From a virus, in IMG/VR virus record IMGVR_UViG_3300045974_001005, positions 1 through 57,366 of that record: a stretch of DNA of 57,366 nucleotides. One strand, 5' to 3'. The notes under the pieces are model-generated. The model was not told the DNA's origin. It saw nothing but the letters and a program-made list of their open reading frames with translations, and searched no databases. Shown piece by piece: positions 1 to 29,128 of the stretch. Position 1 is the stretch's first letter, and every line of letters starts with the position of its first letter. The position numbers were made by a program, and so were the translations under genes.

Positions 1-768
1 ATGTATTTTTTCATGCTTAAAAATCATAGTTGGCGGATACGCCTGCAAGCCGCTTTCGCAACCTGGCTGGGGCGTGCGTTACCCGCGCCAGCAAACAACC
101 TGCCACCAACCGTTTCACCCGCCACGCCCGTAGCGCCTGCAACCCCGCTACCCGTTGCTGCGCAAGCCAGCACATCCGCATCCATCACCCCAATCACATG
201 GTTCGCCGCGCTGTCACGCGATCTTTTGCCCGTGCTTTTCATCGACACAGCATCAGGCCAGCTTATTAAAATCAACGGCATGTCGCGCAAGCAGTTGGCG
301 GAATATCTGCGCTGCCCAATTTACACCGACCACACCACCCGCTGGACTTCGCTTGGCAATGAATTGCGCCGCGAAGGTTTCACGGTTGCCACGGCATTTC
401 AGGCGCAGGAAGATGCCTTGCTCGCCATGGAAGCGCTGGAAAGCGCAAGATGGTATGCCACTGCCCAACTGGCGCATCTGGACAACGAAATCCATCAAAC
501 CTTTGTGACGCTGATCGCACCGCTGATAGAACACGGCGATGATGCCACAGCCGTTACCCCACTGATGAGCAAAGCCGCGCTGGCCAACTTTGCGCAGTTG
601 CTGGTCTGCCGCAAAACCATGAGCGAGGAACTGGCCCGGATTGACGAAGAAGCCATCCCGACCCTGCAACGGATTGGCATGGCGCTACCTGCCGAAATGG
701 TGAGCGCCCTCACTGCCACCCGCAGCCAAGCGCCAGCTTACGCCCCCACCAGCGAGTGCGCAGCATGA
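1..768 (+). CDS. Hypothetical helical protein A, first gene of the HsdM-like cluster
   Basis: 255 residues of unknown function. The first 25 residues are basic, residues 28-60 are a Pro/Ala/Thr-rich linker, and residues 140-235 are predicted long helices. The C-terminal part resembles the next gene: both have a Y-A-x3-L-A-x-L helix and, after a spacer, a helix with C-R-x(3-4)-E-E-L-A-x-I-D. I infer an old duplication. The stop overlaps the next start (ATGA), so the two are probably translated together. The start is the first base of the window, so its promoter and true N-terminus cannot be judged. Confidence 0.75.
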   Translation: MYFFMLKNHSWRIRLQAAFATWLGRALPAPANNLPPTVSPATPVAPATPLPVAAQASTSASITPITWFAALSRDLLPVLFIDTASGQLIKINGMSRKQLAEYLRCPIYTDHTTRWTSLGNELRREGFTVATAFQAQEDALLAMEALESARWYATAQLAHLDNEIHQTFVTLIAPLIEHGDDATAVTPLMSKAALANFAQLLVCRKTMSEELARIDEEAIPTLQRIGMALPAEMVSALTATRSQAPAYAPTSECAA

Positions 769-1232
769 AGCCTGACATCCGCACCCGCACCGCGTACCCG
801 CCCCTGCGCACCCAATTTGCGCAACGGCTTTGGTGCCCCAGCCCCGGATGGACGCCATGCCACGCACTGCGCGCTGCACAAGTACGCCATGCAGGCGCAT
901 TGCAGCCAGTGCACACGCAGGATTGCCAACCGGATGGCCGCGCACTGGCCAAGCTGCGTGCGCTGACACGCACCCAACGCTATGCCCAAAATGAATTGGC
1001 CCAACTTGAAGCGGAATTGGCCGCGCTGCTGAAAACCATCGGCCCGCCACCGCAAGGCTTGGCTGCATGCGCAGCCTCCGCCACCACCGCAAAGGCCCGC
1101 GCCAAGCACCGCAGATTGAAGGGGTTGCAAATCGCCTGTCGGGATATCAGGGAAGAATTGGCATGGATTGATGCCGACCTGAAAGCCGCATGGGACGAGA
1201 TCGAAGCAAGCCAATCCGCCGCCCCGGCCTGA
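765..1232 (+). CDS. Hypothetical helical protein B, paralogue of the C-terminal part of protein A
   Basis: 155 residues, taken from the ATG at 765 that overlaps the previous stop; an in-frame GTG lies nine bases upstream. The first 45 residues are Arg/Pro/Cys-rich and look disordered. Residues 60-150 form two predicted helices matching those of protein A (CRDIREELAWID here, CRKTMSEELARID there). A helical hairpin or coiled-coil adaptor would fit, but no enzymatic motif is visible. A hairpin with a U-run follows the stop, so genes A and B may form a unit separate from the HsdM-like genes. Function unknown. Confidence 0.7.
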   Translation: MKPDIRTRTAYPPLRTQFAQRLWCPSPGWTPCHALRAAQVRHAGALQPVHTQDCQPDGRALAKLRALTRTQRYAQNELAQLEAELAALLKTIGPPPQGLAACAASATTAKARAKHRRLKGLQIACRDIREELAWIDADLKAAWDEIEASQSAAPA

Positions 1233-1288
1233 ACCGTTTTCCGTGTCGATCCTCAGTCGTAGCGGCATTCTGCCAAAGCAACTGTTCA

Positions 1289-1335
1289 GGGCGGGTGGGA
1301 AGGCTGATGTTGCCGTACCCGTTCGCCCTTTTTTT
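1289..1335 (+). terminator. Terminator-like hairpin ahead of HsdM-like gene 1
   Basis: GGGCG (1289-1293) pairs with CGCCC (1324-1328), and inside it GGG pairs with CCC across a small internal loop; seven T residues follow. It lies 57 nt after gene B and ends 30 nt before the ATG of the first HsdM-like gene. It could terminate the A-B transcript or act as an attenuator for the gene behind it. Confidence 0.55.
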
Positions 1336-1364
1336 ATTTCATTTTTCATGAAGCACAGCTACCC

Positions 1365-2636
1365 ATGATATCCACCTCACCGCTTACCGACCGCAGGCTG
1401 TTACCGCTGGAACAGGTGCGCTTGCGCATGCCACAATCATGGCAAACTCCCCTTGTCGCCGATGCCCTGCTGACCTTGCTGTTCTTCCGGCTCGTATCCT
1501 GCCATTGGACTGAGGAAGCCATGCGGTTTCAGGTCGCAGGCAAGGCGAGCGAAACGCTTTTGCAAGCCATGCTGGACAGCGGCCAATTCTTGATGAGTGC
1601 CAATGCGATGTTTGCGAACTGTCGGGCGGGCAACCCGGCGCACCTTGGTGCAGCGATTCAGGAAACCATGCAGACATGGATCAACTCGCAGGTGAGCGAT
1701 ACCGCGCATAAAAAGCTGGCCGCGATTCTCCGCCCGGAACGCTTTGGCAACCTGTTCGCCGATGCCAGTGAATTGGCCAAGGCGCTCGATCTGATCGACG
1801 CCATCACCATTGACCCTGCCACCCCTTCGCCGCAACTCGGTGCATTGTTTGCGCAGGCCATGCACTTGCTGGGCAGCGGCCCCGCGCCCGCCGTGCAGGA
1901 CGCCATGGTGCGGCTGGCGCAACTGGTGCAACCGCAAGCCAACGAGATCGTGTTTGATCCGGCTTGCGGCCAAGGCAACCTGTTGCAATCGTGCGCGGCA
2001 GCGCTGGCACTGCGTGCCCCCGCCAGCACGATGCACTTGTGCGGCATGCAAGCACTGCCAGACGATTGGGCACTGGCCTGCATGCTGCTGCACCTGTCCG
2101 GTCAGCACCATTTTTCGTTGACCCTTGGCGGGCCAACCCATACCCCGATTGCCGCGCAGATATTCCAGCAAGTGACGCCTGCCGATCTGGTGGTGACCAT
2201 GTTGGTACACAAGACACCCATGGCGCAAGCCGTGACCACCCTTCGCTATGCGCTGGCCTGCATGAAACCTGACACCGGGCGCATGGGCGTGCTGGTGCCG
2301 TTGTCCCTGCTGGCATCCATTGAGGGCAAGACCATCATCCGCTTGCTGCTGGAACAGGATTTTCTTGATGCCGCAGTTGGCCCGCTGACAGACGATGCGT
2401 CACCGCTGTTGATCCTGCTGCTACGCCAACAACGCACGCGTGTCCCGGTGGCTTTCATCAGCGCCGCCCCGGATGGCGATGCGGCAGACAATGCGGCAGC
2501 GGCGCTTGCAGCCTGGCAACAGGGGCAAAGCCATGCAGCCTTGCGCGAGCTTGACCCGCAGGCCATCGCAAATCGGCAGTACACACTTGTTGCCCACAAC
2601 GAAGGCCAATCCGGCGCTGACCGGGGTGGTGGGTAA
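1365..2636 (+). CDS. HsdM-like protein 1, degenerate N6-adenine methyltransferase fold
   Basis: 423 residues. The N-terminal 150 residues match the helical domain of type I modification subunits, including LRPERFG at 122-128. Motif I, the SAM loop, is DPACGQGNLL at 198-207. The catalytic NPPF/Y expected near residue 280 is absent: the strand reads VVTMLVHKTP. A C-terminal strand region with a Met-Gly-Val-Leu-Val-Pro segment follows, as in HsdM. Seen: fold motifs kept, catalytic tetrad lost. Inferred: binds SAM or DNA, or serves as a structural subunit, without methylating. A six-codon ORF (MKHSYP) starts at 1348 and overlaps this ATG as ATGA, possibly by chance. Confidence 0.8.
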   Translation: MISTSPLTDRRLLPLEQVRLRMPQSWQTPLVADALLTLLFFRLVSCHWTEEAMRFQVAGKASETLLQAMLDSGQFLMSANAMFANCRAGNPAHLGAAIQETMQTWINSQVSDTAHKKLAAILRPERFGNLFADASELAKALDLIDAITIDPATPSPQLGALFAQAMHLLGSGPAPAVQDAMVRLAQLVQPQANEIVFDPACGQGNLLQSCAAALALRAPASTMHLCGMQALPDDWALACMLLHLSGQHHFSLTLGGPTHTPIAAQIFQQVTPADLVVTMLVHKTPMAQAVTTLRYALACMKPDTGRMGVLVPLSLLASIEGKTIIRLLLEQDFLDAAVGPLTDDASPLLILLLRQQRTRVPVAFISAAPDGDAADNAAAALAAWQQGQSHAALRELDPQAIANRQYTLVAHNEGQSGADRGGG

Positions 2637-2857
2637 GTATCCATTTTGGCGGCAACGCCAATACCGAATCTGTTGCAAGTTGAGCCGACCATGACACGGT
2701 TCGATTTGTGGCAGATGTCTCCCGCGATGTTTGTCATTCATCGCGCTTCTTGGGCTGGTGTGTGCATTTAACCCCTGTTCACTCCAAGACGTGTGTTTCC
2801 CGCACCAGCCCTTGTTTTTAGCCAACCGAATTCAACCCGTTTTATTTTTCAAAGCGC
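2637..2857 (+). other. Structured non-coding gap between HsdM-like genes 1 and 2
   Basis: This 221-nt gap has no credible ORF but holds three stem-loops in a row: TTGGCG/CGCCAA closing a GCAA tetraloop (2646-2661), CGCGATG/CATCGCG (2723-2745), and the 9-bp stem of the terminator-like hairpin (2752-2811) with its U-rich tail. The order looks like a small RNA or a regulated leader. I found no strong promoter in front of it. Confidence 0.4.
2752..2820 (+). terminator. Terminator-like hairpin ahead of HsdM-like gene 2
   Basis: GGGCTGGTG (2752-2760) and CACCAGCCC (2803-2811) form a perfect 9-bp stem around a 42-nt loop, followed by TTGTTTTT. The run ends 38 nt before the next ATG, the same placement as the hairpin before HsdM-like gene 1. 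Either a terminator or an attenuator; the long loop is unusual for a simple terminator. Confidence 0.55.
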
Positions 2858-4225
2858 ATGAACAACAATGCCGCACTCATGATCTACCGCGCCAAGGCGC
2901 TGATGCCCACCTCCATGGGCGCACACGAATGCGCAGACATGCTGGTGACCTTGTTATTTTGGAAGCTGGTTTCCGACTGGTGGCGCAGCGGCGCACCGCA
3001 CTGGTGGCAATCCTATTCCGGCAGAAACCCGGCCTGCGTCGCCATGGAACGGCAAAATGTCCTGCTGTGCGCTGACGCCGCCATTTACGAAGCCTGCCAG
3101 TGGCCGCATGGCGGCGAAACGAATGAAGCCATCGAGGCCGGCAAGGCAATTCGTGCATCGCTGTATGCCTTGGCACGGGCACAAACCAAACCCGCTGCGA
3201 TGATGGACATGTTGCGCCCGGAACGCTTTGGTGAATTGGGCGAGTTCGCCGCTTCATTCCGCTGCGCCAATACCTTGCCAAAGGTGATCGATATCATCGG
3301 TGGCATCAGCAACATCCCGCCCGAGCGAATGGGCAAGACCTTGATTGATCTGGTCGGCACGCTGGAAATGTACCCACCGTGGCCAACGGCCAGAAGCATC
3401 AGGCTGATGGCGAAGTTGCTCAATCCCTTGCGTGGTGAAACCGTGCTTGACCCGGCCTGCGGCAGCGGACAATTGTTGCTGGCCTTGGTGGCGGACATCG
3501 AAAGGCACGAGCGCGACCATGAACTGGTATTGCTTGGCCAAGAAAACCGCACCAGCCAATGGGCCATCACCAAAATGCAATTGCTGCTGCGGCCCCTGAT
3601 GCTGCATCGGGTGGACAAATCCGACGCGTTGGATTCGCCCTTGCTGGACAGCGCAACAGAGCAGTTGCAACAGGCCGACGTGGTGGTGCTGGCCGTCCCT
3701 GACGAAGCGCAGGAATGGAACCCGGCAAGCCATTCTCACGATGCGCGCTTCCCGCACGGCGTACCGGAAAGCGGCCGCATTGCCCTGATGTGGCATGCGC
3801 TGGCCTGCATGAAGGCGGACAGCGGGCGCTTGGGTCTGCTGGTGTCGGGCTCGCTCTTGGCCCTTGATGCCAGTTTGCCGCTGCGCCGCTATCTGGTGGA
3901 TAAGCAGTTGCTGGAAGCCATCATCCAGTTGCCGCGCATACGTCGCCAAACCGTGCAAAGCGCAGGGTGTTTGCTGCTGATTCGTCCGGCGCAAGCAACG
4001 ATTGCGCTCATCGGTAAGCCCTTGCCGCAAAGCGATGCGGACAAATCCAACTATTCCACCGACGACATCGAAGCGGCTTGGAACGACTTGCGCATGTGCC
4101 GTACTCACCCCTGCCTGCAAACGGTGTCGGGCGCAACCATTGCCGCGCAAGGCTACCCATTTGTTCCTCCTGCCATACCCGAACCTGCTGACCCTGCACC
4201 CCCTTGCCAGAAAGCCAAGCCATGA
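2858..4225 (+). CDS. HsdM-like protein 2, closest of the three to real HsdM
   Basis: 455 residues. The N-terminal helical domain carries LRPERFG at 119-125. Motif I is DPACGSGQLL at 198-207, and the typical HsdM segment after it is kept (LGQEN at 226-230, then WAITKMQL). Where NPPF should follow, the sequence is VVVLAVPDEA (275-284). The downstream R-F-P-H-G-V-P stretch and the GRLGLLVSG strand are again HsdM-like. So SAM binding may survive while the adenine-flipping catalytic tetrad does not. The tail (410-455) is Pro-rich. The stop overlaps the next start as ATGA. Inferred role: non-catalytic partner of the HsdS-like protein. Confidence 0.82.
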   Translation: MNNNAALMIYRAKALMPTSMGAHECADMLVTLLFWKLVSDWWRSGAPHWWQSYSGRNPACVAMERQNVLLCADAAIYEACQWPHGGETNEAIEAGKAIRASLYALARAQTKPAAMMDMLRPERFGELGEFAASFRCANTLPKVIDIIGGISNIPPERMGKTLIDLVGTLEMYPPWPTARSIRLMAKLLNPLRGETVLDPACGSGQLLLALVADIERHERDHELVLLGQENRTSQWAITKMQLLLRPLMLHRVDKSDALDSPLLDSATEQLQQADVVVLAVPDEAQEWNPASHSHDARFPHGVPESGRIALMWHALACMKADSGRLGLLVSGSLLALDASLPLRRYLVDKQLLEAIIQLPRIRRQTVQSAGCLLLIRPAQATIALIGKPLPQSDADKSNYSTDDIEAAWNDLRMCRTHPCLQTVSGATIAAQGYPFVPPAIPEPADPAPPCQKAKP

Positions 4226-5499
4226 CCTCTTTACTGTCCACCCTCGAATCCGCCCTCAGCCTGATGCCGCACGACGTTGCGGTTGGCACCCGTGCCAGCG
4301 TGTTGTTGCAATTGCTGTTGCTCAAGGCCCATTCTGACATTTGGCAACATCAGGTGACCCAGGCGGAAAAGGCAGGCACACCACTCTGCGCCTTCAACGC
4401 CAACCAAACCCAACGCAAGCAACTGTTGATGAACGACGCCTGCCTGTACGACAACTGCCTGTCCGCGCCACCCGAAGAGACGGGCAAGGCCATCCGCGAT
4501 GCCCTGCTTGCCTTTGTCACCTGTCAGGCGCACGGCGAACTCCATGGTGTATTCCAACCGGAACAGTTTTTGCGCCTTGATTCGCTATTGAGTCAGCATG
4601 GCAAAACCACGCATCTGGCCGACATGGTGCGGGCCTTGGGTGAATTGTCCTTTGCCGACATCCTGCCATCGCCTGATCTTGGGGAAGTCATTGCGCAGGC
4701 TTTCATAACGCTGGGCCTTGGCCCCGATCCGGCACAGTGCGAGGCCGCCCAATTGATGGTGCAATTATTAAAACTAAAAAACGGGCAACGGTTATTTGAT
4801 CCGGCGTGCAGTCAAGGTATGCTGCTGTATGCCGCCGCCAGCCATATGGCGCGCTTTGCCCCCGCCGAGGCAGTTGGCTTGTGTGGCATGACGGCAAACC
4901 GGAACGATTTTACGGTCGCCAGCATTTTGTTCATCCTGTGCGGCCAACCGCAAGCGCGCCTGCATCTGCGGGACTGCCTTGATGTCATGGCACAACAAAG
5001 CCCGCAATCTGATCTGGTGCAGGCCGACCGGGTTTTGACCATCATCCCCGATGCTGCCATTGCGTGGAACCATGCGCTGGCATTGCGCGATGCTGATCCG
5101 CGCTTTCCGGTACGGCCCCCGGCAGATAGCCGCGTGGCGCAGTTCTGGATTGCCTTGGCCAGTGTCAACCGCTCTGGACGCATGGCCGCATCGATTCCCG
5201 CACACCTGTTTGAGAGCGTGGACGGCAATGCCTTGCGCGCATATCTACTCAAGCACAACCTGCTGGAAGCGGTTATCGCATGGCCTGCGCCAGCCACGGA
5301 AGCAAGCCCTGTAATGAAAGGGCGCAATCTTGTTTTGCTGAATCGGCAAAACCCGCATGCCGGATCGGCTTGGATTGGCCCCGGATTGGGCAATCCGGCC
5401 AACGATAGCGGCGTACCTTATGACGCCAACAACGTTCTGTTGGCGTATGGCGCATGGCTACAGCAAAAACGCAATCCGCATTTGCTGGCCGGGTCATGA
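4222..5499 (+). CDS. HsdM-like protein 3, most diverged
   Basis: 425 residues from the ATG that overlaps the previous stop; an upstream in-frame TTG at 4204 is less likely. The layout is the same as in the two preceding paralogues, but motif I is DPACSQGMLL (193-202), with the first loop Gly changed to Ser. The catalytic site reads LTIIPDAA (272-279) instead of NPPF/Y. Conserved neighbours remain (R-F-P near 292, then a G-R-M-A-A-S strand). The LRPERFG box has weakened to FQPEQF. The ordered loss across three genes suggests the copies specialised rather than simply decayed, because all three frames are open. Confidence 0.78.
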   Translation: MTSLLSTLESALSLMPHDVAVGTRASVLLQLLLLKAHSDIWQHQVTQAEKAGTPLCAFNANQTQRKQLLMNDACLYDNCLSAPPEETGKAIRDALLAFVTCQAHGELHGVFQPEQFLRLDSLLSQHGKTTHLADMVRALGELSFADILPSPDLGEVIAQAFITLGLGPDPAQCEAAQLMVQLLKLKNGQRLFDPACSQGMLLYAAASHMARFAPAEAVGLCGMTANRNDFTVASILFILCGQPQARLHLRDCLDVMAQQSPQSDLVQADRVLTIIPDAAIAWNHALALRDADPRFPVRPPADSRVAQFWIALASVNRSGRMAASIPAHLFESVDGNALRAYLLKHNLLEAVIAWPAPATEASPVMKGRNLVLLNRQNPHAGSAWIGPGLGNPANDSGVPYDANNVLLAYGAWLQQKRNPHLLAGS

Positions 5500-5563
5500 T
5501 TGCGCCCGGTTCGTATTGCCAACTGGCTTGATCAACAAACCAAACCCCTACCGAAAGGAAACC

Positions 5564-5917
5564 ATGGAACTTTCAGATATGTCCCTCTCGCAATTGCGGG
5601 ACTTGCAAAACCAGTTGAGCGCCGAAATACAGCGGCGCAACCAAGCCGAAATTGAATGCGCCCGGCAACAGATTCTGGCCATTGCCGCCAGCGCAGGCAT
5701 GTCGCTTGCCGCTCTGCTTGCCATACCGAAACGGGCAGCATCACTAAAAGCCAAGTCCGTTCCCGTGCGCTACCGCCATCCGCACGATGCCACCCTGCAA
5801 TGGACTGGCCGTGGCCGTGCGCCCTTGTGGGTAGCCGAATGGGTCAACGAGCACGGCAACCGCGATGGACTGCGCATTGCCGACACCAATCAATCAGTGA
5901 ATGGAGGTCAAGCATGA
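5564..5917 (+). CDS. H-NS-like nucleoid-associated DNA-binding protein
   Basis: 117 residues. The N-terminal part (5-36) is a predicted coiled-coil for dimerisation, with LRDLQNQLSAEIQ. The C-terminal box at 70-89 (YRHP, then W-T-G-R-G-R-A-P-L-W) is the AT-hook-like DNA-binding motif of the H-NS family. A Shine-Dalgarno GAAAGGAA precedes the ATG. Family members silence AT-rich foreign DNA or bridge DNA; here it may regulate the cluster or form part of a DNA-bound complex with the HsdM- and HsdS-like proteins. The stop overlaps the ATPase start as ATGA, so it is probably a working member of the operon. Confidence 0.88.
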   Translation: MELSDMSLSQLRDLQNQLSAEIQRRNQAEIECARQQILAIAASAGMSLAALLAIPKRAASLKAKSVPVRYRHPHDATLQWTGRGRAPLWVAEWVNEHGNRDGLRIADTNQSVNGGQA

Positions 5918-6507
5918 AAACAGAAGTCGAATTGCATCACCGCGCCGAATTACGTCAAGCCAGTGGCACGCCAATCGCTGGCGAAAAGAACCAAGGCTTG
6001 GTGGTGGTCTTCACGGGCAAGGGCAAAGGCAAGACCACTGCCGCCATCGGCATGGCATGGCGCATGATCGCTGCACAAAAACAGGTCGCGGTGCTGCAAT
6101 TTGTCAGCGCCATGGATAACAGCGCCGAATTGCAGACCTTGGGGCAAAACCCGCTGTGCACATTCAAAGTGTATGGCAGCGCTTGCCAATGGCAAGGCAC
6201 AAGCCACAAGGCGGATGTCGGCGCGGTCAATGCCATATGGCACGATGCAAAAAACCTGATGGCCAATCCGGCCATCAGCATGCTGATTCTGGACGACATC
6301 CTGCCCGTGATCGGCAACTCCTATTTGAATCTGGATGCATTGATACAGGCGTTGAAGAACCGCCGCCCCGATTTGCATGTGGTGCTCACCGGACGCAATG
6401 CCGTGTTTGAACTGACCGATTTTGCCGATCTGGTGACCGACATGCGCTGCATGAAACATCCGTACCCGGATAAAAAGATCGCGCCACAGCCAGGTATCGA
6501 GTTTTAA
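5914..6507 (+). CDS. CobA/CobO-type P-loop ATPase
   Basis: 197 residues, start at the ATG overlapping the H-NS-like stop, with GGAGG eight bases upstream. Walker A is GKGKGKTT at 35-42. The C-terminal signature of ATP:corrinoid adenosyltransferases is present (VLTGR at 157-161, then KHP at 181-183 and PQPGIEF at the end). The usual Walker B LDE is LDD here (126-128), and the Trp/Thr/Gln/Asp segment around the corrinoid is only partly kept. No cobalamin gene is nearby and the neighbours are restriction-modification-like. I infer a repurposed ATPase or adenosyl transferase rather than vitamin B12 metabolism, but true CobA activity cannot be excluded from sequence. Confidence 0.85.
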   Translation: MKTEVELHHRAELRQASGTPIAGEKNQGLVVVFTGKGKGKTTAAIGMAWRMIAAQKQVAVLQFVSAMDNSAELQTLGQNPLCTFKVYGSACQWQGTSHKADVGAVNAIWHDAKNLMANPAISMLILDDILPVIGNSYLNLDALIQALKNRRPDLHVVLTGRNAVFELTDFADLVTDMRCMKHPYPDKKIAPQPGIEF

Positions 6508-6544
6508 AAACCTGCTGCCAACGGACAATGACAGGGGAAATGAC

Positions 6545-7702
6545 ATGACCGTTTTACATGTGCCACTGCTGGACGTGGTGCGCATCAATCCAGAGCCAGC
6601 CATGGATGGGCGAGTAGGCAAGGTGGCCTACATCAGCGCCGACCAGATCAAGCCCGATACGCTGGACGTACAAGCCGAAGTCCGGGCTGATATTGACCTG
6701 TCAGGCAAACCCGGCTGTTTTCAGGCAAACGATTTATTGCTGCCCGACCAATGGCGCAAACTGGCAGCGGGCGCGGTTTGCCAAGTTCATAGTGATCTGC
6801 CCCATGGCTACCATGACGGCGAGTTGCTGACACTGCGCGCCGATCCGCATCATTTGGACAATCGTCTTTTGTTGTACCTGTTACGCCAACCCGCGATGGC
6901 AGATCAAATCCGGGACTGGTATGCCAACCAGTCCAACAAAATAAGGAGGGTGGCGACATTTTTGCAGCAATTGCGCCTGCCGCTGCCACCGCTACGCACG
7001 CAAAGAGAGTGGCTGACGCAACTGAACCAGGCGTCAGAGCATTGCCAGCGGCAACAAGTGCAATGGCTGGCTTTGGATCAACGGCGTCGGCACCTGTTCA
7101 TGGATGTATTTGGCACAGCGGCACAGATGCAGCAACGGTGGCCTGCCGTGCCGCTGCCCAGCCTGCTGCATGGCTATCGGATGGGGGCGGAATCGACTTA
7201 TCGCGCCCTCTATCAAGGCCCGTTGATGATCCTGCCTGCCCACCTTGGTAGCCATCGTTTTAGCTGTGCCGATCCGGTTTTTCTGCACGAAGGGCGACCA
7301 CCACCCAGCAGCCTGCAAATATTCGCAGGGGACGTGCTGCTTGACACCGGCATCGGTACGGCGCATGCAACTGCGGTTCCCGCAGGGATACCAACCGCCT
7401 TTGCCGGGTCGGGCGTGGCCCTGATGCGGCCAAAACAGGTCGAGCCGGGTTTTCTGGCGGGCTACTTTTGCGCCGAGATCGCTGTCCAGGCGTTTGAAAA
7501 GCAAATCACGGATAAAAAACAGCAGGCGATCAAGCGTAGCAACCTGACGGCATTGTCGGTGCATTTGCCGCCTGCCGAATTGCAAAAGGTCTTTGTTGAA
7601 CAGAGCGCGGCCACTTTGCCCGAGATCGACGAAGCCGAGCGCCAATGGCGGCACGCCTGCAAACAGTTGGCGTTGCTGGCACGCCAGCTATTCGGCTCCT
7701 GA
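6545..7702 (+). CDS. HsdS-like DNA specificity subunit
   Basis: 385 residues. Two similar halves are visible, as in type I specificity subunits. The first target-recognition-like domain (about 1-140) is followed by the conserved region LPLPPLRTQRE (145-155) and a long helix (156-185). A second domain (about 195-345) ends in another LPP-containing segment and helix (360-385). AGGGG lies seven bases before the ATG. HsdS proteins bind a bipartite DNA site and dock two HsdM subunits. Here the three HsdM-like proteins upstream are the obvious partners. No HsdR is present, so classical restriction is not possible from this locus alone. Confidence 0.8.
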   Translation: MTVLHVPLLDVVRINPEPAMDGRVGKVAYISADQIKPDTLDVQAEVRADIDLSGKPGCFQANDLLLPDQWRKLAAGAVCQVHSDLPHGYHDGELLTLRADPHHLDNRLLLYLLRQPAMADQIRDWYANQSNKIRRVATFLQQLRLPLPPLRTQREWLTQLNQASEHCQRQQVQWLALDQRRRHLFMDVFGTAAQMQQRWPAVPLPSLLHGYRMGAESTYRALYQGPLMILPAHLGSHRFSCADPVFLHEGRPPPSSLQIFAGDVLLDTGIGTAHATAVPAGIPTAFAGSGVALMRPKQVEPGFLAGYFCAEIAVQAFEKQITDKKQQAIKRSNLTALSVHLPPAELQKVFVEQSAATLPEIDEAERQWRHACKQLALLARQLFGS

Positions 7703-7766
7703 TTGGGTAATCCGTTTTTTTGCTTTCTGTCTTTTGCCCTTTTACTCTTTTTTATTGGAAATTACC

Positions 7767-8432
7767 ATGCGCGTTTCTTCGACCATTTTCCTGTTGACCT
7801 GTCTTTTGGCAAGCGCCATCCTTCCCGCGCACGCGGCAGAAAACGAAGTCAGGGTGCCCATCCCGGCCATCGGCCTGGGATCGCCCGCCGCCACCTTGGT
7901 CAAAATCATTTGGGATTCCACCAAACCCGCGCAAATTACCTTGAACCCCACGAACGCAAAACCCATGGCAGCGGCCAGCATGCCGCCCATGGTCGGCGAA
8001 TTGTTGCGCGTGGAGCCCAGCATACCGATAGCGGGCGCACGCGCCAGTTGGTTGGCTTTTGCCCAATCCGACATCAGTCTTTGCGCCGTCAAAGCCGATT
8101 CGCCCGATCTGGTTTGCGTGCGTCTGGCGGTGCCCAACCTTGGCGCAACCTGGGTCAGTGTCGAAGCGGATGCGCCAAGCGGGCATTTTGCCCTGCGTTA
8201 CCGCTTTCGCTACGACCAGCGCTTGAACGGCATGGTCATCCATACCCCCCTGCTGGGGACGGTCGCCATTGGCCTGGCACACGCGATTGCCGGGGCCAGC
8301 GCCGCAATGGGAGACTTTTTCGTGACGGGCAATCCCGATTCCATCGCCGTGACCGCTGATACCTGCATCGCCGGGGTGCGTGACGGCGTGGCGTGGGAAC
8401 GCGGTGAAGGGTGTAGTCCACTGCCAAAATGA
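7767..8432 (+). CDS. Exported protein of unknown function
   Basis: 221 residues from the ATG at 7767. A clear signal peptide (basic start, hydrophobic 6-20, Ala-His-Ala at 25-27) predicts Sec export to the periplasm or beyond. The mature part is mostly beta-like and contains two Cys pairs (around 113-126 and 203-215) that could form disulfides. A hydrophobic Ala/Gly stretch at 165-185 might insert into a membrane. A T-rich 64-nt gap separates it from the HsdS-like gene, so it may belong to the same transcript. I do not recognise a family. Confidence 0.75.
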   Translation: MRVSSTIFLLTCLLASAILPAHAAENEVRVPIPAIGLGSPAATLVKIIWDSTKPAQITLNPTNAKPMAAASMPPMVGELLRVEPSIPIAGARASWLAFAQSDISLCAVKADSPDLVCVRLAVPNLGATWVSVEADAPSGHFALRYRFRYDQRLNGMVIHTPLLGTVAIGLAHAIAGASAAMGDFFVTGNPDSIAVTADTCIAGVRDGVAWERGEGCSPLPK

Positions 8433-8490
8433 GCGCCTGATCAACTGCGCCACACTGTCCCCGCGTGCCCATTTTGAAAGGTACAGATAC

Positions 8491-8518
8491 AAAAGTCACG
8501 ATGCAAGTGACTGTTTTT
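8491..8518 (+). terminator. Probable rho-independent terminator
   Basis: AGTCAC (8494-8499) and GTGACT (8507-8512) form a 6-bp stem with a 7-nt loop, followed by G and five T residues. It lies in the 182-nt gap after the first exported-protein gene and probably ends the cluster transcript. Nothing else is recognised in the gap. Confidence 0.5.
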
Positions 8519-8614
8519 ACGAAGCGGCACAGAGTGCATCATCAATGGGAGCGATTGGAAGCGCTTGTTTTGATATGCGATATTTACTTTAACTGTTATG
8601 CATGGAGCAGTCGT

Positions 8615-9055
8615 ATGAAATTGTTTAAAAATTCGTTATTGGGACTTGGTTTGATTGCAATGAGCCCGTTTTGCTTGGCGCAAACCCCGGTTACCGCCAA
8701 CATACAAGGGACGCAACAATGCGTCAAAGTATACGGGGCAAAAGTCACTTTGCCAGACGGCACCAATGCCCGCGTCAAAACACGCAATGGTGAAATGGCC
8801 ACCATCACCGTTACGCCGGATGGTCGGGGCATCGGCATCACGCCATCTACGTTGGATACCAAACCGGGCCTTGTCAGGCTGGAAATTTTCAATATCACCA
8901 CTGACGCAGACAAAAAGCCTGTTGCCGTACATGCTGCATTTGTGAAAGTGGCTGAACAGGGCGAAGCAACTTATGCGCAGGGTAACCTGAGCTTTAAAAT
9001 CGAAATGTTGCCCGCAGCGCCTGCGATCAGTGGTGACAAGCAATGCAAAATATGA
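8615..9055 (+). CDS. Small exported protein of unknown function
   Basis: 146 residues from ATG 8615, with GGAG eight bases upstream. The signal peptide is clear: MKLFKNSLL, a hydrophobic core, and a C-L-A | Q cleavage site near residue 23. The mature part is beta-rich with two Cys (QQCVKVYG near 33, KQCKI at the end), likely one disulfide. It could be a small periplasmic or secreted beta-sandwich. It converges with the giant phage gene, leaving only 37 bp between them. Whether it belongs to the host, the accessory cluster or the phage is open. Confidence 0.72.
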   Translation: MKLFKNSLLGLGLIAMSPFCLAQTPVTANIQGTQQCVKVYGAKVTLPDGTNARVKTRNGEMATITVTPDGRGIGITPSTLDTKPGLVRLEIFNITTDADKKPVAVHAAFVKVAEQGEATYAQGNLSFKIEMLPAAPAISGDKQCKI

Positions 9056-9092: not shown

Positions 9093-12000
9093 TCACTGCG
9101 CCAACTCCTTCCTCACCGCCAGCTTCAACGCCTTCGGCGCGGTGTGCTGCGTGCGCAAAATCACATCCTCCCGCATCGCCCGTACCCGCTTGGCCACACC
9201 CGGCATGTCAATTTTGATCGGAGTTTCCGGGTTTTTCCGATTCCAGTCATCGCGCCATGCCCTCGCTTCCCGCTGCATCGCCACATCCCCGCTGGCAATC
9301 CCTTGCGCCAAATGCTCGGCAATTTCGGTTGATCGCATCCGGGTTTGCGCAATCATGTTCAGTGCTTGCCCTTTTGCGTCCTGAATATTGGCCGTGCTGT
9401 TTGGCTGAAAACCGACCATTTTCATGATGCCTTCCAATGGCGTCACATCGTTGACCTTGTAGCCGCGTGCATCCTTGTACTGGCCGCTGGCCATCATGTC
9501 GGCCCCCTTGGCGAGGTTGCGCACCGATTGCGGCGATACATCAAGCGCCGCTCCCACCAGATCACCATCGAGCAACTTGCCAACACCGCTAAAGGCGCGT
9601 TTGGCAATGTCACCCGCAGGCCCAGCCAATTCGCCCAGGTCTTGGGTGTAAGACATTTTCTTGGTCAACAAACCCGTGGCCGGAATCAAATTGCCCATCC
9701 CCAGCCGTCCGGCTACGTCAATCGGCATGCCAGGCAAGCTGGATATGCCCTTGATGGCGAAGTCGGCACCGCTGCTTCCCAGCACGTCCGTGAAGAAGGC
9801 TTGCTTTTGGCGTTTGGTCGAAAAGTTGTAGCCCAGCCGTTGCAGCAGACCATCCATCAAGTCTTCCAGGTTCTTTTCAAACGGCAGGCCATCCATGCCC
9901 GACATCAGGAACAGCACCGCCAACATATATAAAGCGCCGCGTCGGCCCGCTGCCCGCTGCGGTGAACCGGGGCTACCTGCAAAGGCCATGCGGGACAGCA
10001 ATTCCACGTAGGCGATGCTGTACTGCTTGAACGTCATCAACAAGCCGCCCAAACTGGAGCGCGCCCAGCGCGGCTTGTTGCCGCTGTTGTACACGCCTTG
10101 CGTTTGTGCCACCGCTTGCCGTGCAAACCCTGCCGGGTTGGCGAAGCCTTCGGCCACGGCAGTGCGCCATGCGGCAATAAAGGTAATGCGCCGATTCGAT
10201 AGCTCGGCAATGGCAAACAATTTGCCCCAGCCCACCATAACCTTGGCAATGGCATTGTTCAACTGCGCCCGCGCATCGCCCAGCGCGGTGCCATCCCCCG
10301 ATTGTAACGCGCCGCGCCCCGCTGCCTGTGCTTGCAGGTAATGCACTTCTTGCGGTGCCACGATGCCTTCATCGCTGGCCCACTGCAAGGCCGCATCGAG
10401 TTTGGCATCCCCGGTTTCGTCTTTGCGCGCATCACGCACCGCTGTCATCAAGCGTTCGCTGGCCTTGGTGATCCCGCCAAACTGGCTCAGATAAGGCAAA
10501 GTCATGGTCAGCGGTTGGGTCAGGTTGACCATGGCGGATGCCACCGAGCCACCCAAAAACTGTGCAAACATCAAGCCGCCCAGCATGGTGCCGCCCGATT
10601 CCGGGTTGCGGATGTGTTCGCGCAATTGCATCGCGGCATCAATCAGTTGCCCTTGTTCCTTCGGTATGCTGGTGACGGCTTCATCAATTTCGCCCAGGTG
10701 GACATTGCCCGCCGTTAACCGTGCATTCGAGTACACGAACGACGCCAACACGCGTCCGGCGTCTTCAGAAAACCCGGCAATCCCCTTGCGCGTGATCATC
10801 CGCTTCAAGGCGCTGCGGTTGCTCTTGGCCAGTTGCAGGTATTTCTGGTAGACCTTGGTGCTGGCGGCATCGGTCTGAGTATCGAGCCCGACCATGCTGC
10901 CGAACAATTCAATCGTTTCCGGCGAAATGCCTGCAAACAGTTTATAAGCGTCTTCCGACAAAGTGCCTTGCGAAATCTCGGCGTCGGGATGGCTGGCGCG
11001 CATAGTGCGCGCCATTTTGGCCGCTTCCATCGCGGTTTCAAACAAGCCGAAATACAGTTGCTCGCCGTTTTCCTGCACATAGACGGCAAATCGGCCAAAG
11101 CGCGACAAGGGCGCATAGCCGCGTTGCATCAATTCCTGCGCACGTCCGGCCAGATTGGCGATGGTTTGCGCGGTTTGCAGGTGTCGCTTGGCGGGGCCAC
11201 TGTTGTCAGGCCCACCGCTGGCCTCAGCCAATTGCTGAAAGTGTTCCAACAACAAGGTGGTTGCCTCTTGCAAATTGGCGGTTTTCATCGCGGCGTCCAA
11301 CAGTGGCTTGGCATCCTTGCCGCCCATTTTCACCATTTCACTGATCGTTAAATTGGTCAGGCTCTTGTCAATGGCGGCGCGAAATTCCCGATACATGCCG
11401 ATTTGGGCCTCATTCAGGCGGAACAGGTCGCGCAGTTCGGCGTTTGTCCACACGATACCCGGCACCAGTTGCGAGTCGGCGAACTTTTTTTCTATCAAGG
11501 CGGTATAGCCCGCCTCGTTCATGCGCTGCCACACCCGGTTTTGCTCGGCATCGATGACTTGCTTTTGCATCAGGATATGGAGTTTTTCTTGCAGGCTCAA
11601 GCCTTCAGCCCGGCTTTCAAGCTCACTGATCTTGATCGCCTGACCATTGTCATCCCGCGTCCACAGCAAGGTGCCCTCAAAAATCGGCGCGGCAATGGCT
11701 TGGGTGTCCGCTGCCGTTAGCGGCTTTTTGCGCTTGCTGCCCAGGATGTCGCGCATGTTTTCCAATTTGGGCAGCAAGGTTGGTGCCTCATCTGCGGCCA
11801 CAACCGCATAGCGGGACACGTCGCCCAAAAAGCGCTGGATGGTGTGGTACACACGGGCAAAGGCGGGTTGGCGGCGCGCCAGATTGTCCATGGTGCCTAT
11901 CGTCTTGTGCCACCAGTTGAGTTTGCCGGACTGATTGAACAAATCGCCCACCACAAACCCGGCGGGCAATTGCAACTCTTGCACATTGTTGGCGGCATTG

Positions 12001-15000
12001 GCCAACGATTGGGACAATGAGTGCGCCAAGCCCCGGCTATACAGAATGTGTTCGGCCTGACCTATATTGGCGTGTAGCTCTGTGCCAATACGTCCCAATA
12101 GCGCTCGCCCATCTTCGCGGCTCTCGCTGCGTAAAACGGTACCTGTGATAGCTGCTCTTTTAATCGTTGCGCTTCCAATCGCCGCAGTCGTTGCAGTTCC
12201 TGATAACGCGGATCGTTGTCGTAGTCTGTCCGTAGCTCTTGCAGCCAGTTTTTGGAAGTCAATGTCTCCGAGCAATTCGCCCCGTTCTCCGGTAAAGTCG
12301 GCATATTCGGTGAGGTGGACATGGTTAATCTCTGGCAACAAGGAAGAAACATAATCATAAGATGCCTTGAGCATTTGCGCAAGATTGTGCTGATCCAGTC
12401 CCACCGCCCAGCTCAACCCTTTCATGCCTAGCCGCTTGGCAATCGGGCCTTTGGGATCGCGTTGCAATGCGTGTGGCCGGATATGATCGGTAGTGCCGAA
12501 TTTCATGGCGGTAGAAATCATGTTTTCCAGACGACGCATTTGCGCAACCTCGCTGAACCCGGCACTGTCGCCTTCCAATACCTTGCCGGTATTGAAGGCA
12601 TAATTGGCGACAGCGGCGTACAGCGCTGACCCACGCGAACTGCCCGATAGCAGGCGCGATGCATCGATTTGCAAGTCACGGCCAAATTCATAGACAAAGG
12701 CTTGCTTGCCATCTTCCATGGTGACCACCCATTGCTTGCTGGCCGTGGTGCGGGCTTTGGCATCGGTTTCCGGCAATGGCTGTACCTTGAACTTTGGCAT
12801 GATGTCATGCATCACGGCAATCAAATTGCGGGCGTGGGATACCGGATATTGATAGGCGTCTTCGTGCCCGGCGATGGTTTTCCAAAGGGATATCAGCCAG
12901 CTTGCTTGCTCGGCCTGGCTGAATGCAACGGCTGGTGTGACGCTTTGGGTCGCGCTTTGCTTTGTCCCCGTGTCAGATTGGGCCGGATGCTGCGCCGCCA
13001 GTTTTTGCGGTGCCCGTTGCAATGCGCGCTGCGCCGCATACACCAGATCATGCGCCGACATCATGCCCACCGCACGGAACCAGCGGGCACGCGCCAGCAG
13101 CGGCAAGCTTTGGCCAAGACTGCGGATGATGGAACGGAACCAGGCAATGACTTTTTGTGCAAACGATAATTCGGGGTTCGCTTCCAGGTAATACCCGAGA
13201 GCTTCTTCATTCATCGATTCCTTGCTGCTGCCCACCTGTTCGGCACGGGCGAACGCGGCTTGTACTTTGGGATTGCCGTTTTTCATGAGCGCAAAATAGT
13301 TCAGCAATTGCTTGAATTCGCGCGTGGCCCGTCCCAGGTGCAGCGCATGGTTGGCCAACTCGTGCAGCATCAAGCCATGCAAGGCGCTGCTACTGGCTTG
13401 CCTGCTGATCGCGTCGGCAATCAGATAGGTGACGCCATCTTGCGGATTGAAGAAGGCCACCGGCGCATAGGGTGCGGCTTGCGGCGCTTGGGCACCGTCG
13501 TCATGGCCTTGCAGCAGCGTTGACGCTTGATCGCTGTCGATCAGGCGCAGCTTGCCCGTTGCCAGCAAATTGCCAAGGAAGTCAGCACCGTAAGCATGCA
13601 GGCTCGATGACAGGGCCGGAATTAGCGATTGCACGGTGTGGGTAAGCCCAGCTTGGGCCAGCTCTGGCCGCGCCGCTTGCGACAATTTTGGACTTTCTTC
13701 AACGGCAGCATCGCCACTGTTGGCGGCGTCATCGATCAATGCCGCATGTTTGCCGGTCGATAGTTCGCTGATGACTTGATTCAAGCGCGCAAACTTGGTG
13801 TCAATCTGGTCTTGCTCGGGAAAACCGCTGCCTTTCTTGGCCAGCAGTTGCGGCAATTCATCATTGGCCTGCTGTAAGCGCGACTGCATCCATGTGATGG
13901 TGGATTCACCGCGCAATCTTTCCAAGTCTCGCAGCAAATAATCCAGTGCCCCGCGCATAATCGAGGTGTGGAAGTCGCCCGCGTCACGCTGTTCCATCCT
14001 GGTACTGGCCAAGGTGGAGCCGTCAAGGCGAAGCAAGCTCAAACTGGCGTAGTAAGCAAATTCGCCGCGCTCAATGCTGATGTCGAGCGGCAAACCCAAC
14101 AATTGCCCGACGATGACACTTTCTGACGCCTGCTTATTCAGGTTGGGAATTCGGGGCTTGATGTCTTCCCACATGGCGCGTGCGGCATCCGTGCGCCCGC
14201 CAAAGCGGCGCTGCCCGATCTCGCTGGCAAACGGGTTGGCATCACCCAAGGCATCGGAAATGGCACGCATTGCGCCATCGTCCGAAGTCAGGCGACGTTT
14301 TTCGACCGAAACAGAAAACTTGGCCTTGTCGTTGCCATTTTGCTGGCGCGCAATCGAGGCCAATACCGCTTGCTGGGCGGCATGGTGCTGGTCATATTCC
14401 ACACCTTCCACCACCACCCGGCGTGACTGCACATCGGCGAGCATGGCATTGAATCCGTTGAGAAGGGACAGTCTATCTTGTTCGGCCTGTTCAATTTGGC
14501 CAGGCAGGCGAGCAATATCGCGCTCGGCCTGTTCGATTTTGTCGGTCACGCCGCGTTGCTTGCGCAAATACTGGCGTTTTAACAGTTCCAGTTTGTCCAA
14601 TTCGCTCATCAACTTGACCCGCTCCAGCAACAGCGGATCACCCGACGCCAGCGCCGCCAATTCGGCCATGCTGACCGATTCCTCATCTTCAAATTCCATC
14701 ACGAAGGCACCGTCATATTTGCGGATGCCGTTGATGGTTTTGAGTTTGGCCGCGTTCAGGCTCCACATTTTGGCGTCAATGGTGCGTTCGGTGGCATAGG
14801 CCAGAATTTCGACTTCAAATTGGTCAACGCCATATTTTTCCAGCAAGCGATTGCCTTGCCGGATAATCCGGCCTTCGCGCTGTTCGATATCGCTGGGTTT
14901 CCAGGTCACATCGACATGATGCAAGGCCACCAGCCGTTGTTGTACATTGGTACCCGCACCCATGCGCGGGGTTGAGCCGATCAGGACGCGTACCGCGCCA

Positions 15001-18000
15001 TCGTTGACCGCATCAAACAGGGCTTGCTTTTGTTCGTCGGTATTGGCTTCCTGCACAAAACGGATTTCATGCGCGGGAATGCCTCGCGCCAGCAAATTGT
15101 CCTTAATCTGCTGGTAGGCATTCCAGCCGCCGTTCTGCGCATTGCGCAGCGCTTCAATTTCAATGGCATCAAAGGCATCAAGTTTGTCGCCAATGCGGCG
15201 CAAGGTGGATTCATCGGCATGTGCTTGCAATGCTCTGGTTTGTTCCTTGCGCAAGGCATCGTATTCGCGTATCAATGCGTTGTCGCCTTTGGATTTGGCG
15301 ACGGATCGATCCAGAAACACCAATTGCGTGCCCCGGTCGTCGTCCCACTTTTTGTAAATACGCGCCACTTCATCGGCCACTCTGTCGAGTTTGCCGCCTG
15401 TCTCAAGGCTGGGGTTGGTCGGTGCAACGGCGCGCACATCAAGCGACACCTTGCGCGCCCGATCCATCAATTTCAAGCGTTCCTTATTGCGTTCATAGGG
15501 GTCTTCGATTTCCGGCAGGCTGTCAAAGCCGTTGATGATGGCTCCCAATAGCTCAATCTGGGCGTCGGTCGGTTGAATGATCACCGATTGGCGGTCGCCA
15601 TGCATGACGCGGGGAATCGGGAAGGCGGCACCGTGATTGTCTTCCGCATAGGCGCGTTTGATGGCGTCGTTGTCCACCGAATCGGTAAAACTGTAATACA
15701 AGTCCATCAGCGAGCGCATGTTCGACCAGGTGCGGCCAAGGCGCACCACTTCGGCCAGGCGTCCGGTTTCATTCGGCTCCCATCCTGCATCCGCGCTCAC
15801 ATATTGGGCACGCCAGGCGTCAAAGTGCTCCAGCCCCAATTCTTTCAATTCATTCGCCGCCAGATAGCGCATCATGGTGTACATTTCCACCGCCGAATTG
15901 GAAATTGGCGTACCGGTCATGAACATCACGCCGCCCGTGGGCGATTCGCGCAGCACGCGCACCTTGTTATACAAGTCGAGTGCTTTTTGCGAACCGAGCT
16001 TGTTGTTCATGCCGCGCACGCCCGTCAATCGACTGGAATAAAACAGGTTCTTGAATTCGTGCGCTTCGTCAATCGTCAAGTGGTCGATGCCCAATTGTTC
16101 AAAGGTCAGCAATTTGTCTTTGCGGGTTTTGACCTTTTCCAGCCGATTCGTGATTTTTTCCACCAGCCGTTCGGCTTCCTTGACGCCAAACGGCTTGCGA
16201 AAGCCGGTGTGGCCATTGGCTTGGGCCTCGTCTTCGGCTTCTTTCACCGCATCCAGCGCCTGTTTCAGTTCAACCTGCAAAAACCGCTCTTCCGTTTCCG
16301 GGGCGATGCCAATAAACCCGAATGACGAATGGGCCATGATGATCAAGTCAAAATCACCCGTGGCAATTTTGGCAAACAGGCGACGCCTGCGCTCTTTTGA
16401 CATATCGTCTTTGCTGGCGGCCAAGACCTTGGCCCCCGGATATAGCCGATAAGCATCGGCAGTAAATTGCTCAATCATGTGGTTCGGTACCACAATCAAG
16501 GGCTTTTGCGACAGCCCCATGCGGCGGCGCTCCATCGCAATCGCAATCGAGGTATAGGTTTTACCCGCTCCTACCGCATGATCGAGCATCAAAAAGCGTT
16601 CATACACCCCACGCCAAATCGCGTTTTTTTGGTGGCGGCGCATTTTGGTGACGCTATCGGGCACTTTGCCGGGTAATACCAAGTGGGAACCATCGTATTG
16701 GCGGTTGACGCGGGTGTTGAACTTGTCGTTGAACAATTCCACCAATTGATTGCGCCGCTCGCTGTTGGCAAAGGCCCATTCTTCAAATTCCTTGGCGATG
16801 GCGCGCGCCTTGAGGTTGGCCAAATCGGTTTTTTCCCGATCCAGCACTGTCGCGCCATTCGATGCTTTGTAGGTGACGCTGATCGTGTCATTGTCCAATA
16901 ATGCTTCGATCAATTCAACCGAGGAATAGCCATCCGCGCTCCATTCATCTTCGTTGGCATTCACCCGCTTATTCTGATTGTCCAGAATCCGCACATGAAA
17001 TTGATTGCTCAGTTGCGAGAATGTCACTTTGGCCGCAACGCCGGAAATGTGAAAAATGAAATCCTCATAGGTGCGTGTCGGCACCCAGGTCGAACCGAGC
17101 AAGACCGTCACATCTTCGCTAGTCCACGGTTCAGGCTGTACCGTTTCCAAGGCCGCGATATTGGATTGCAACCCGGCAGCGCGAGCGGCATTCAATTTGC
17201 GCCGCACTTCTCCCGACAGGTAATCGTTGCGTGTTTCCCAGCGCTCGCTCTCGGGATCTTGAAAAATCAACGGTTTTTCTTGCTCCTGCACACGCTGCGC
17301 CAATTCGGGCTCGGTCATGCCCAGCAATTCGGCCAGGCGCGCCATATCGACCTTGCCTTGTTCGGCCAGGGTAATCGACAAGGCGTCGGCGAACGATTGC
17401 GCCGATGCCGGGGCAATATAGGGCACGATCACCCGGCGCGACAGGATCGGGGCCGGGTTGGCGCTGGATGGGCGGGCTTGATCACCGATTTTGGCGGCGC
17501 GTGCGCTTGAGATTGCCGGGCGATAGCCAAATTCCAGCGCCAGAATCAAGGCACCATCGGGCATATCGTTCAGCAGCGCGGCATTGGCCGGATCATTGAT
17601 CAAACCATGGTCGCTGGTAAATGCCCGGTATTGGCGGGCCAGGGACTGGCGATTTTGTTCCAACACGTCAGCAGGCGAGTTATCGGCTTCACGATTGAGT
17701 TGTTCCACCAACAAATCGCGTAACCCGACCAGCTTTTGCAAGCGTTCAAAGCGCGATTGGCCCAGCAATAGCGAGGCCGGGATGTCCGCTTCGGTCGCAT
17801 ACACCTTGCGCGCCACCACATTGCGGTTGATGGTCTTGTCGCCGCGCTTTTCCTTGACTGGCTTGCCATCATCGTCCAGCACCACCTCATTGCTATACCA
17901 GCGGCCAAGGGCATCCTGAAACAGCCTGTCAGACCATGGCGAGGCGGGCGAGAGAGTACGCTTGCTCAGTTCATGCCCGCCTTCCGGGGTTTCCCGTTCG

Positions 18001-27274: not shown

Positions 27275-27454
27275 GGGATGCTCCTGTGTTGAAAACAGGC
27301 GCATCGTAAAATCGACTTGCAAAAAACTTGAAATTTTGTTGGTTTTTTGGATTTTTGTTGCGTTTTAGCCAGTCACAGAAGGTATGACTAAATCACCAAT
27401 TGGTTGTGGGAACCATTTATGGATTATCTCACTCCTTTTTTTGATATCAATTGT

Positions 27455-27483
27455 TTGCAGTTAAATGAACCTGATGGTAGAAT
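27455..27483 (+). promoter_or_regulatory. Sigma70-type promoter for the DUF2026-like gene
   Basis: TTGCAG (27455-27460), a 17-nt spacer and TAGAAT (27478-27483) point right toward the DUF2026-like gene, 107 nt before its chosen start. It lies in the AT-rich 315-nt gap between divergent genes; the rest of the gap shows T-runs but no gene. Confidence 0.5.
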
Positions 27484-27589
27484 GGTGTGAATGTTGCAAA
27501 TATGATGTTTTGTGCAAGCGCCCTTACTTTTCCTGTGTCCTATGCCGTCGGCCATGTCTATGGCTTGGCTTTTTAATATTTTGCAAGTC

Positions 27590-28282: not shown

Positions 28283-28412
28283 TCGCTTTAGACTTTGTCG
28301 TAAAGCCCCAAGAGCGCAGGGGGAATTTTCATGTTTCCATCATAAATTCTGCAACGTTGTGTTATGGGCCGTTTTAATGTCATTTTTAAATATAGACGAA
28401 TTACAAAGCGAT

Positions 28413-29057: not shown

Positions 29058-29128
29058 CGCAAGAACGATTTAAAAAAACTAGAAACGCTGTTGAATGGCC
29101 GGATTTTGTTTTCAGTAAGAAATCTTGC

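What the first reader, a model, noticed from the sequence alone, without database searches (positions are those of the whole stretch)
1..7702. Undescribed cluster: three degenerate HsdM paralogues, HsdS-like, CobA-like ATPase, H-NS-like and two helical proteins
Eight consecutive + strand genes, four junctions overlapping as ATGA, combine type I modification-like subunits with a P-loop ATPase of the corrinoid adenosyltransferase family and an H-NS-like protein. No restriction subunit is present. I know of no named system with this set. Plausible roles are phage or plasmid defence by site-specific DNA binding, or DNA marking; all are inference.
Basis: partly seen in the sequence, partly recalled or inferred. 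Interest (0 to 1): 0.88.

Follow-up and report, generated by a model that had tools for sequence, protein, structure and literature searches.

The report
Prophage cluster of dead HsdM-like proteins
At one end of a beta-proteobacterial prophage sits a rare gene set whose DNA-methylase-like proteins have lost both their catalytic motif and their docking tail yet have been kept since before two related phages diverged; this points to an undescribed non-catalytic module, probably used in phage-host conflict.

Summary
The gene set is real. The window is an IMG/VR prophage record: terminase, portal and capsid, a 4938-aa polyvalent virion protein and a tyrosine integrase. The cluster at 13-7702 runs convergently into the polyvalent gene. 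M1, M2 and M3 are HsdM-derived (Pfam; AlphaFold and PDB match PacII M1/M2). All lack NPP[F/Y] and also the C-terminal tail that anchors HsdM to HsdS. The cluster recurs in one relative (G001; portal 71% identical, same integrase type), in the same slot, with two dead HsdMs, a CobA-like and an H-NS-like gene. A chromosomal copy (helical protein plus dead HsdM) and a close CobA-like gene occur in genome G043. The six dead HsdMs form one clade (100/100) with two paralogue groups, so motif loss predates their split. The three CobA-like proteins form a clade (99/97) that shares corrinoid-site replacements. H-NS is carried by most relatives and is not specific. HsdS is in the window only. There is no HsdR, and no known system matches. 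This is a rare, old, non-catalytic HsdM-derived module. My best guess is interference with host type I restriction by mimicking the M subunit; prophage defence is close behind. Function is inferred, not shown.

The parts
13..768 (+). orf1, helical protein without database match (251 aa from ATG 13; the frame is also open from ATG 1)
   Evidence: No Pfam, PHROG, PADLOC or NCBIfam hit; its C-terminal half matches the helical protein directly upstream of the chromosomal dead HsdM in G043 (pairwise E 2e-6)
765..1232 (+). orf2, helical protein (155 aa), 4-bp overlap with orf1
   Evidence: No family hit; weak similarity to orf1 (pairwise E 0.005)
1365..2636 (+). M1, HsdM-derived protein, catalytic motif absent (423 aa)
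   Evidence: PF02384 1e-5; no NPPF/Y, no C-terminal tail; in the dead-HsdM clade
2858..4225 (+). M2, HsdM-derived protein, catalytic motif absent (455 aa)
   Evidence: PF02384 2e-24; AlphaFold model pLDDT 82.5, pTM 0.84; best PDB fold match PacII M1/M2 7vs4/7vru, E 4e-20
4222..5499 (+). M3, HsdM-derived protein, catalytic motif absent (425 aa), 4-bp overlap with M2
   Evidence: PF02384 6e-11; closest to M1 in the tree (98/90)
5555..5917 (+). H-NS-like DNA-binding protein (120 aa); a general gene of this phage group
   Evidence: PF00816 2e-10; homologues near the polyvalent gene in relatives L091-L094, L097, L102, L103 and G001
5914..6507 (+). CobA/BtuR-like P-loop protein (197 aa), 4-bp overlap with the H-NS-like gene
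   Evidence: PF02572 2e-46; below NCBIfam cut-offs; Cys in place of the aromatic residue 91, LDD in place of LDE
6545..7702 (+). HsdS-like protein, full length (385 aa)
   Evidence: PADLOC Specificity_I 8e-21 over residues 24-375; absent from G001
7767..9055 (+). two small ORFs with signal-peptide-like starts (7767-8432 and about 8615-9055), same strand, membership unsure
   Evidence: No family hit
9093..23909 (-). 4938-aa polyvalent protein with SF2/SNF2 helicase, adenine-methylase-like domain and LPD37; convergent neighbour that defines the slot
   Evidence: Pfam: LPD37 9e-57, SNF2 9e-6, Eco57I 0.004; C-terminal 539 aa 75% identical in G001
56062..57366 (-). tyrosine integrase at the other end of the prophage
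   Evidence: 73% identical in G001, not found at comparable identity in 20 other relatives

Best explanation
The cluster is a prophage accessory module built on non-catalytic, HsdM-derived proteins. Shown: M1-M3 keep the HsdM N-terminal domain and methylase-core fold, but all lack the catalytic NPP[F/Y] motif, the GEFYTP motif and the C-terminal tail that anchors HsdM to HsdS. With the G001 and G043 relatives they form one clade with two paralogue groups, here called alpha (M1, M3, G001 Ma) and beta (M2, G001 Mb, G043). They travel with a helical protein and a CobA-like P-loop protein whose corrinoid-site residues are replaced. Inferred: alpha and beta proteins pair through the M-M face that PacII M1 and M2 use when they close on DNA, and act as dominant-negative M mimics that block or jam host type I restriction-modification complexes. 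The HsdS-like protein of the window and the CobA-like NTPase would be targeting or remodelling partners. In short: anti-restriction by M-subunit mimicry.
For: Catalytic loss in all six family members, and one clade at 100/100 against 49 other HsdM-family sequences. C-terminal tail absent: 0-20 residues after the conserved end motif (a Ser/Gly run in G001 Mb) against 48-84 in ordinary HsdM; deleting the tails abolishes PacII M1M2S assembly, and the M1-M2 face is needed for activity (PMC9613975). Fold match to PacII M1/M2. Same slot, convergent with the polyvalent gene, in two related phages. The polyvalent protein carries a methylase-helicase pair like P1 DarB, which protects phage DNA from type I enzymes (PMC5512222). 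Some relatives carry a C5 DNA methylase in that region, which suggests that it serves DNA-level conflict.
Against: G043 carries a dead HsdM with its helical partner in an apparently chromosomal context, where an anti-restriction role has no obvious use. HsdS is present in the window only. The role of the CobA-like protein is unexplained. No target type I system is identified and no activity is tested. Fast divergence of the cluster (Ms about 30%, CobA 38-41% identity) is not special to it: the cI-like and membrane genes of the two phages have also diverged (44%, 33%).
Confidence: 0.33

Rival explanations
1. Prophage-encoded defence (superinfection exclusion). The dead HsdM assemblies with HsdS bind specific DNA sites or sense incoming DNA, and the CobA-like NTPase and helical proteins execute a block, protecting the lysogen against other phages.
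For: Accessory genes at the end of an integrated prophage, oriented away from the late genes; HsdM/HsdS parts are common in defence systems; weak mad2/mad5 (MADS) matches; presence in a chromosome as well.
Against: No nuclease, protease or other effector domain was recognised in any cluster protein; no PADLOC system is complete; HsdS is missing in G001 and not next to the G043 copy.
Confidence: 0.28
2. Regulatory or nucleoid role. The dead HsdM-like proteins, with the H-NS-like protein, act as DNA-binding regulators of the prophage or host.
For: H-NS-like gene overlaps the CobA-like gene; dead enzymes are often reused as binding proteins.
Against: H-NS-like genes occur in relatives that lack the rest, so the pairing is not specific; three distinct large subunits are much for a regulator.
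Confidence: 0.12
3. A cobalamin- or nucleotide-linked function: the CobA-like protein is a working adenosyltransferase supplied by the phage, and the HsdM-like genes are independent neighbours.
For: PF02572 2e-46, intact P-loop and Trp93; the only CobA-family match in G043 is the closest relative, so it may be that cell's enzyme.
Against: The residues at position 91 (aromatic to Cys) and LDE (to LDD) are replaced in all three members of the clade, and G001 lost the C-terminal end; no cobalamin genes nearby; the association with dead HsdMs recurs in G001.
Confidence: 0.1
4. Host chromosomal genes that flank the prophage attachment site, included in the record by imprecise provirus trimming; both phages share an integrase type and so perhaps the same site.
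For: The integrase is shared only by these two phages (73%); the cluster lies at the end opposite to the integrase; the left end of the record is trimmed at a gene start.
Against: The 38- and 43-bp gaps between the polyvalent stop and the cluster share no sequence and the window gap holds a terminator-like hairpin; no shared word longer than 18 bp between the two cluster regions; the phage-type H-NS gene is inside the cluster in the window, overlapping CobA; relatives continue with phage genes past the polyvalent gene.
Confidence: 0.09
5. A decaying type I restriction-modification locus: pseudogenes with no function.
For: Motifs lost, HsdR missing.
Against: All reading frames are intact; the loss is shared by a six-member clade at about 30% identity with two paralogue groups conserved across phages, which random decay would not keep.
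Confidence: 0.05

Closest known systems
PacII-type non-canonical type I restriction-modification M1/M2 subunits
   Same: Best sequence and fold match (7vru/7vs4); two different M families encoded side by side; N-terminal domain plus methylase core
   Different: NPPF/NPPY and GEFYTP motifs lost; C-terminal tail lost; no HsdR; an extra M copy; helical and CobA-like partners
Phage P1 DarB and the polyvalent methylase-helicase proteins
   Same: The neighbouring 4938-aa gene has a DarB-like methylase-helicase pair
   Different: The cluster proteins are separate small genes, non-catalytic, without helicase, and of the type I HsdM sort with an HsdM N-terminal domain
CobA/BtuR corrinoid adenosyltransferases
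   Same: Fold family and P-loop; 110 bits to S. enterica CobA
   Different: Below NCBIfam cut-offs; residue 91 and LDE replaced; not in a cobalamin operon
MADS (methylation-associated defence system)
   Same: Weak mad2 match of the Ms and mad5 match of HsdS
   Different: Scores far below the curated cut-off (27 against 720 bits); no other MADS component found in the cluster

Membership tests
Type I HsdM (modification subunit) | N6_Mtase domain / HsdM fold | tested here: met
   PF02384 above cut-off for M1-M3; AlphaFold model of M2 matches HsdM structures
Type I HsdM (modification subunit) | Catalytic motif IV NPP[F/Y] | tested here: not met
   Absent in M1, M2, M3 and in all three outside relatives
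Type I HsdM (modification subunit) | SAM-binding motif I (DPxCGxG) | tested here: inconclusive
   Kept in M1 and M2, altered in M3 (DPACSQG) and in G001 Mb and G043; binding not testable
Type I HsdM (modification subunit) | C-terminal tail that binds HsdS | tested here: not met
   0-20 residues after the end motif in M1-M3 against 48-84 in ordinary HsdM
Type I restriction-modification system | HsdR subunit | tested here: not met
   No cluster ORF matches HsdR in Pfam, PADLOC or NCBIfam
Type I restriction-modification system | HsdS subunit | tested here: met
   Full-length HsdS-like protein in the window; not conserved in G001
PacII-type M1M2S | Two distinct, active M subunits (NPPF and NPPY) | tested here: not met
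   Two paralogue groups exist but both lack the motif
CobA/BtuR adenosyltransferase | P-loop ATP-binding motif | tested here: met
   FTGKGKGKTTAA
CobA/BtuR adenosyltransferase | Aromatic residue at 91 with Trp93 (S. enterica numbering; Moore et al. 2012, title seen, numbering placed from memory) | tested here: not met
   Cys at 91 in window, G001 and G043; Trp93 kept; 26 genomic CobA sequences all have Tyr and the S. enterica protein Phe
CobA/BtuR adenosyltransferase | Score over the NCBIfam cut-off | tested here: not met
   169.6 against 185 and 151.6 against 167.75 bits
MADS defence system | mad2 methylase over cut-off plus the other components | tested here: not met
   27 bits against 720; only mad2/mad5-like weak matches
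Any anti-restriction or defence system | Phenotype on restriction or phage growth | not testable with these tools
   Needs bench work

The most novel reading that the evidence does not exclude
A new kind of phage-borne module in which paired non-catalytic HsdM-derived proteins, freed from HsdS by loss of the docking tail, act with a repurposed CobA-like NTPase and a helical partner as a stand-alone machine against host restriction or competing phages.
Probability: 0.35. Interest if true: 0.78.

Novelty: new variant of a known kind. Interest (0 to 1): 0.55.

Why it matters
Dead relatives of HsdM that keep the DNA-clamp domains but have lost catalysis and HsdS docking have not, as far as the libraries and papers searched here show, been described as a family. 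If they block type I enzymes by mimicking the M subunit, they would be an inhibitor type different from DNA mimics such as Ocr and ArdA. If they defend the lysogen, they would be a defence type without a recognised effector. Either way, three defined copies make the question directly testable in laboratory E. coli.

Tried and rejected
Scans of viral contigs with single proteins (M2, CobA, HsdS) found no relatives; with profiles the only close relative was G001. Plasmid hits were ordinary type I loci, as far as neighbourhoods were looked at. Tandem HsdM pairs in Burkholderiales genomes (L204, L209 and others) are PacII-like M1/M2 with intact motifs, with HsdS and HsdR in those inspected, and not relatives of the dead clade. 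The idea that orf1 or orf2 is a split-off HsdM C-terminal tail: orf2 was the top hit of a tail profile, but at E 0.5, no better than shuffled sequences. A further HsdS-type match in G043 (L242) belongs to an ordinary locus. Placing attR by integrase arm-type repeats failed: related integrases (about 50% identical) have AAAGYTACGC repeats upstream, but neither phage record contains them. AlphaFold of HsdS from a single sequence was useless (pLDDT 34).
Full report
What the window is. The record is a 57,366-base IMG/VR virus record that begins at an ATG and ends at the start codon of a tyrosine integrase. The - strand carries a 4938-aa polyvalent protein with LPD37 and SNF2-like helicase domains plus an adenine-methylase-like domain below cut-off, and genes read as portal (43024-45348), capsid (40585-41586) and terminase (46049-47602). 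The terminase and portal have phage relatives; the capsid call is from position and sequence only. Relatives of the polyvalent C-terminus lie in Janthinobacterium and Massilia genomes. The host is therefore probably in Burkholderiales.

The cluster. Eight + strand genes fill 13-7702: two helical proteins, three HsdM-derived proteins, an H-NS-like, a CobA-like and an HsdS-like protein. Three junctions overlap by 4 bp (765, 4222, 5914), not four. Two small ORFs with signal-peptide-like starts follow before the convergent polyvalent gene. Promoter and terminator scans gave no more sites than shuffles, but one terminator-like hairpin sits in the 38-bp gap between the cluster side and the polyvalent gene.

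Dead HsdM family. All three Ms lack NPP[F/Y] and the GEFYTP motif. After the conserved end motif they have 0-20 residues, where ordinary HsdMs have 48-84. In PacII that C-terminal tail forms the four-helix bundle with HsdS, and its deletion abolishes the complex; the N-terminal and catalytic domains form the M1-M2 face and contact DNA (PMC9613975). The AlphaFold model of M2 is good (pLDDT 82.5, pTM 0.84) and its best PDB matches are PacII M1/M2, as in the profile search. So the fold and the clamp domains are kept, and catalysis and the HsdS anchor are lost.

Recurrence. Of 28 related phage records only G001 (57,983 bases, portal 71% identical) has separate HsdM- and CobA-family genes; the three other PF02384 matches lie inside polyvalent proteins. 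In G001 the order, read on the opposite strand, is helical-like protein, M, M, CobA-like, a protein with a signal-peptide-like start, H-NS-like, then the convergent polyvalent gene. Absence elsewhere is soft, because many records are fragments. In about 1,100 Gammaproteobacteria species genomes (overlapping samples, CobA in 394 of them only) one genome, G043, stood out twice: the best CobA match of 394 genomes (228 bits, next 193) and the best M match (353 bits with the first profile, next 185). Its M gene is preceded by a 133-aa helical protein that matches window orf1 (E 2e-6); its CobA-like gene is on another contig.

Trees. The six dead HsdMs form one clade against 49 other HsdM-family sequences (100/100). 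It splits into M1, M3 and G001 Ma (94/71) and M2, G001 Mb and G043 (96/78), so an ancestral pair is likely and M1/M3 look like a later duplication (98/90). Branches are long, so the inner order is tentative. The three CobA-like proteins form a clade (99/97) and share Cys at the aromatic position 91 and LDD for LDE. Long branches are flagged there too, but the shared replacements are independent of the tree method.

Is it phage DNA? The two phages share an integrase (73%) that 19 of 20 other relatives lack, the last having only a 26% match, so a common attachment-site flank had to be considered. The gaps between polyvalent stop and cluster share no sequence between the phages, and no shared word exceeds 18 bp. 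The H-NS-like gene, a general gene of this phage group, lies inside the cluster in the window. In larger relatives the same region goes on with phage or phage-plasmid genes, including C5 DNA methylase and ParA/ParB. I take the cluster as phage DNA, but attR was not found.

Function. Nothing here shows activity. The best-supported mechanism is by anatomy: proteins that keep the M-M and DNA-contact domains, lack catalysis and lack the HsdS anchor are suited to act as dominant-negative M mimics or as DNA-clamping scaffolds. The neighbouring polyvalent protein belongs to the kind that includes the anti-restriction protein DarB (PMC5512222), and some relatives use the region for a DNA methylase. 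This favours anti-restriction slightly over defence. The chromosomal copy in G043, and the lack of HsdS in G001, count against a simple HsdS decoy. The CobA-like protein is probably an NTPase with altered substrate; its role is open.

Literature. Searches for phage-borne inactive HsdM, CobA with defence or restriction, and related terms returned nothing describing such a set in the titles and abstracts listed; the library holds open-licence papers only.

Noticed in passing
window 52141-53118 (-): PAPS-reductase-like / PP-loop protein next to the early genes; such phage proteins could relate to DNA or RNA modification. Named from sequence by eye.
   Followed up: no
window about 27000-31000: Low-GC stretch (0.44-0.49 against about 0.57 for most of the window) with ORFs 27512-28282(+), 28413-29057(-), 29129-30124(-) of unknown function, likely a recent insertion.
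   Followed up: no
L247, L250, L253, L257, L279, L292, L293, L296 just upstream of the integrase start: Integrases of this family are preceded by several copies of AAAGYTACGC in both orientations, probably arm-type or regulatory sites; the two phages here lack that motif.
   Followed up: partly
L238 (G006) 15887-17889 (-), L094 10502-11608, L096 6009-6965: Relatives of this prophage carry ParA/ParB-like genes downstream of the polyvalent gene, suggesting phage-plasmids in the group.
   Followed up: partly
L207 (G051) 6364-7875 (-): HsdM-like protein in a short HsdS / HsdM locus in which NPPF has become HLPF; an independent motif loss outside the dead clade.
   Followed up: partly
L204, L205, L206, L209, L213: Tandem HsdM genes with NPPF and NPPY motifs, in L204 and L209 next to HsdS- and HsdR-like genes: PacII-like systems recur in Burkholderiales.
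   Followed up: partly
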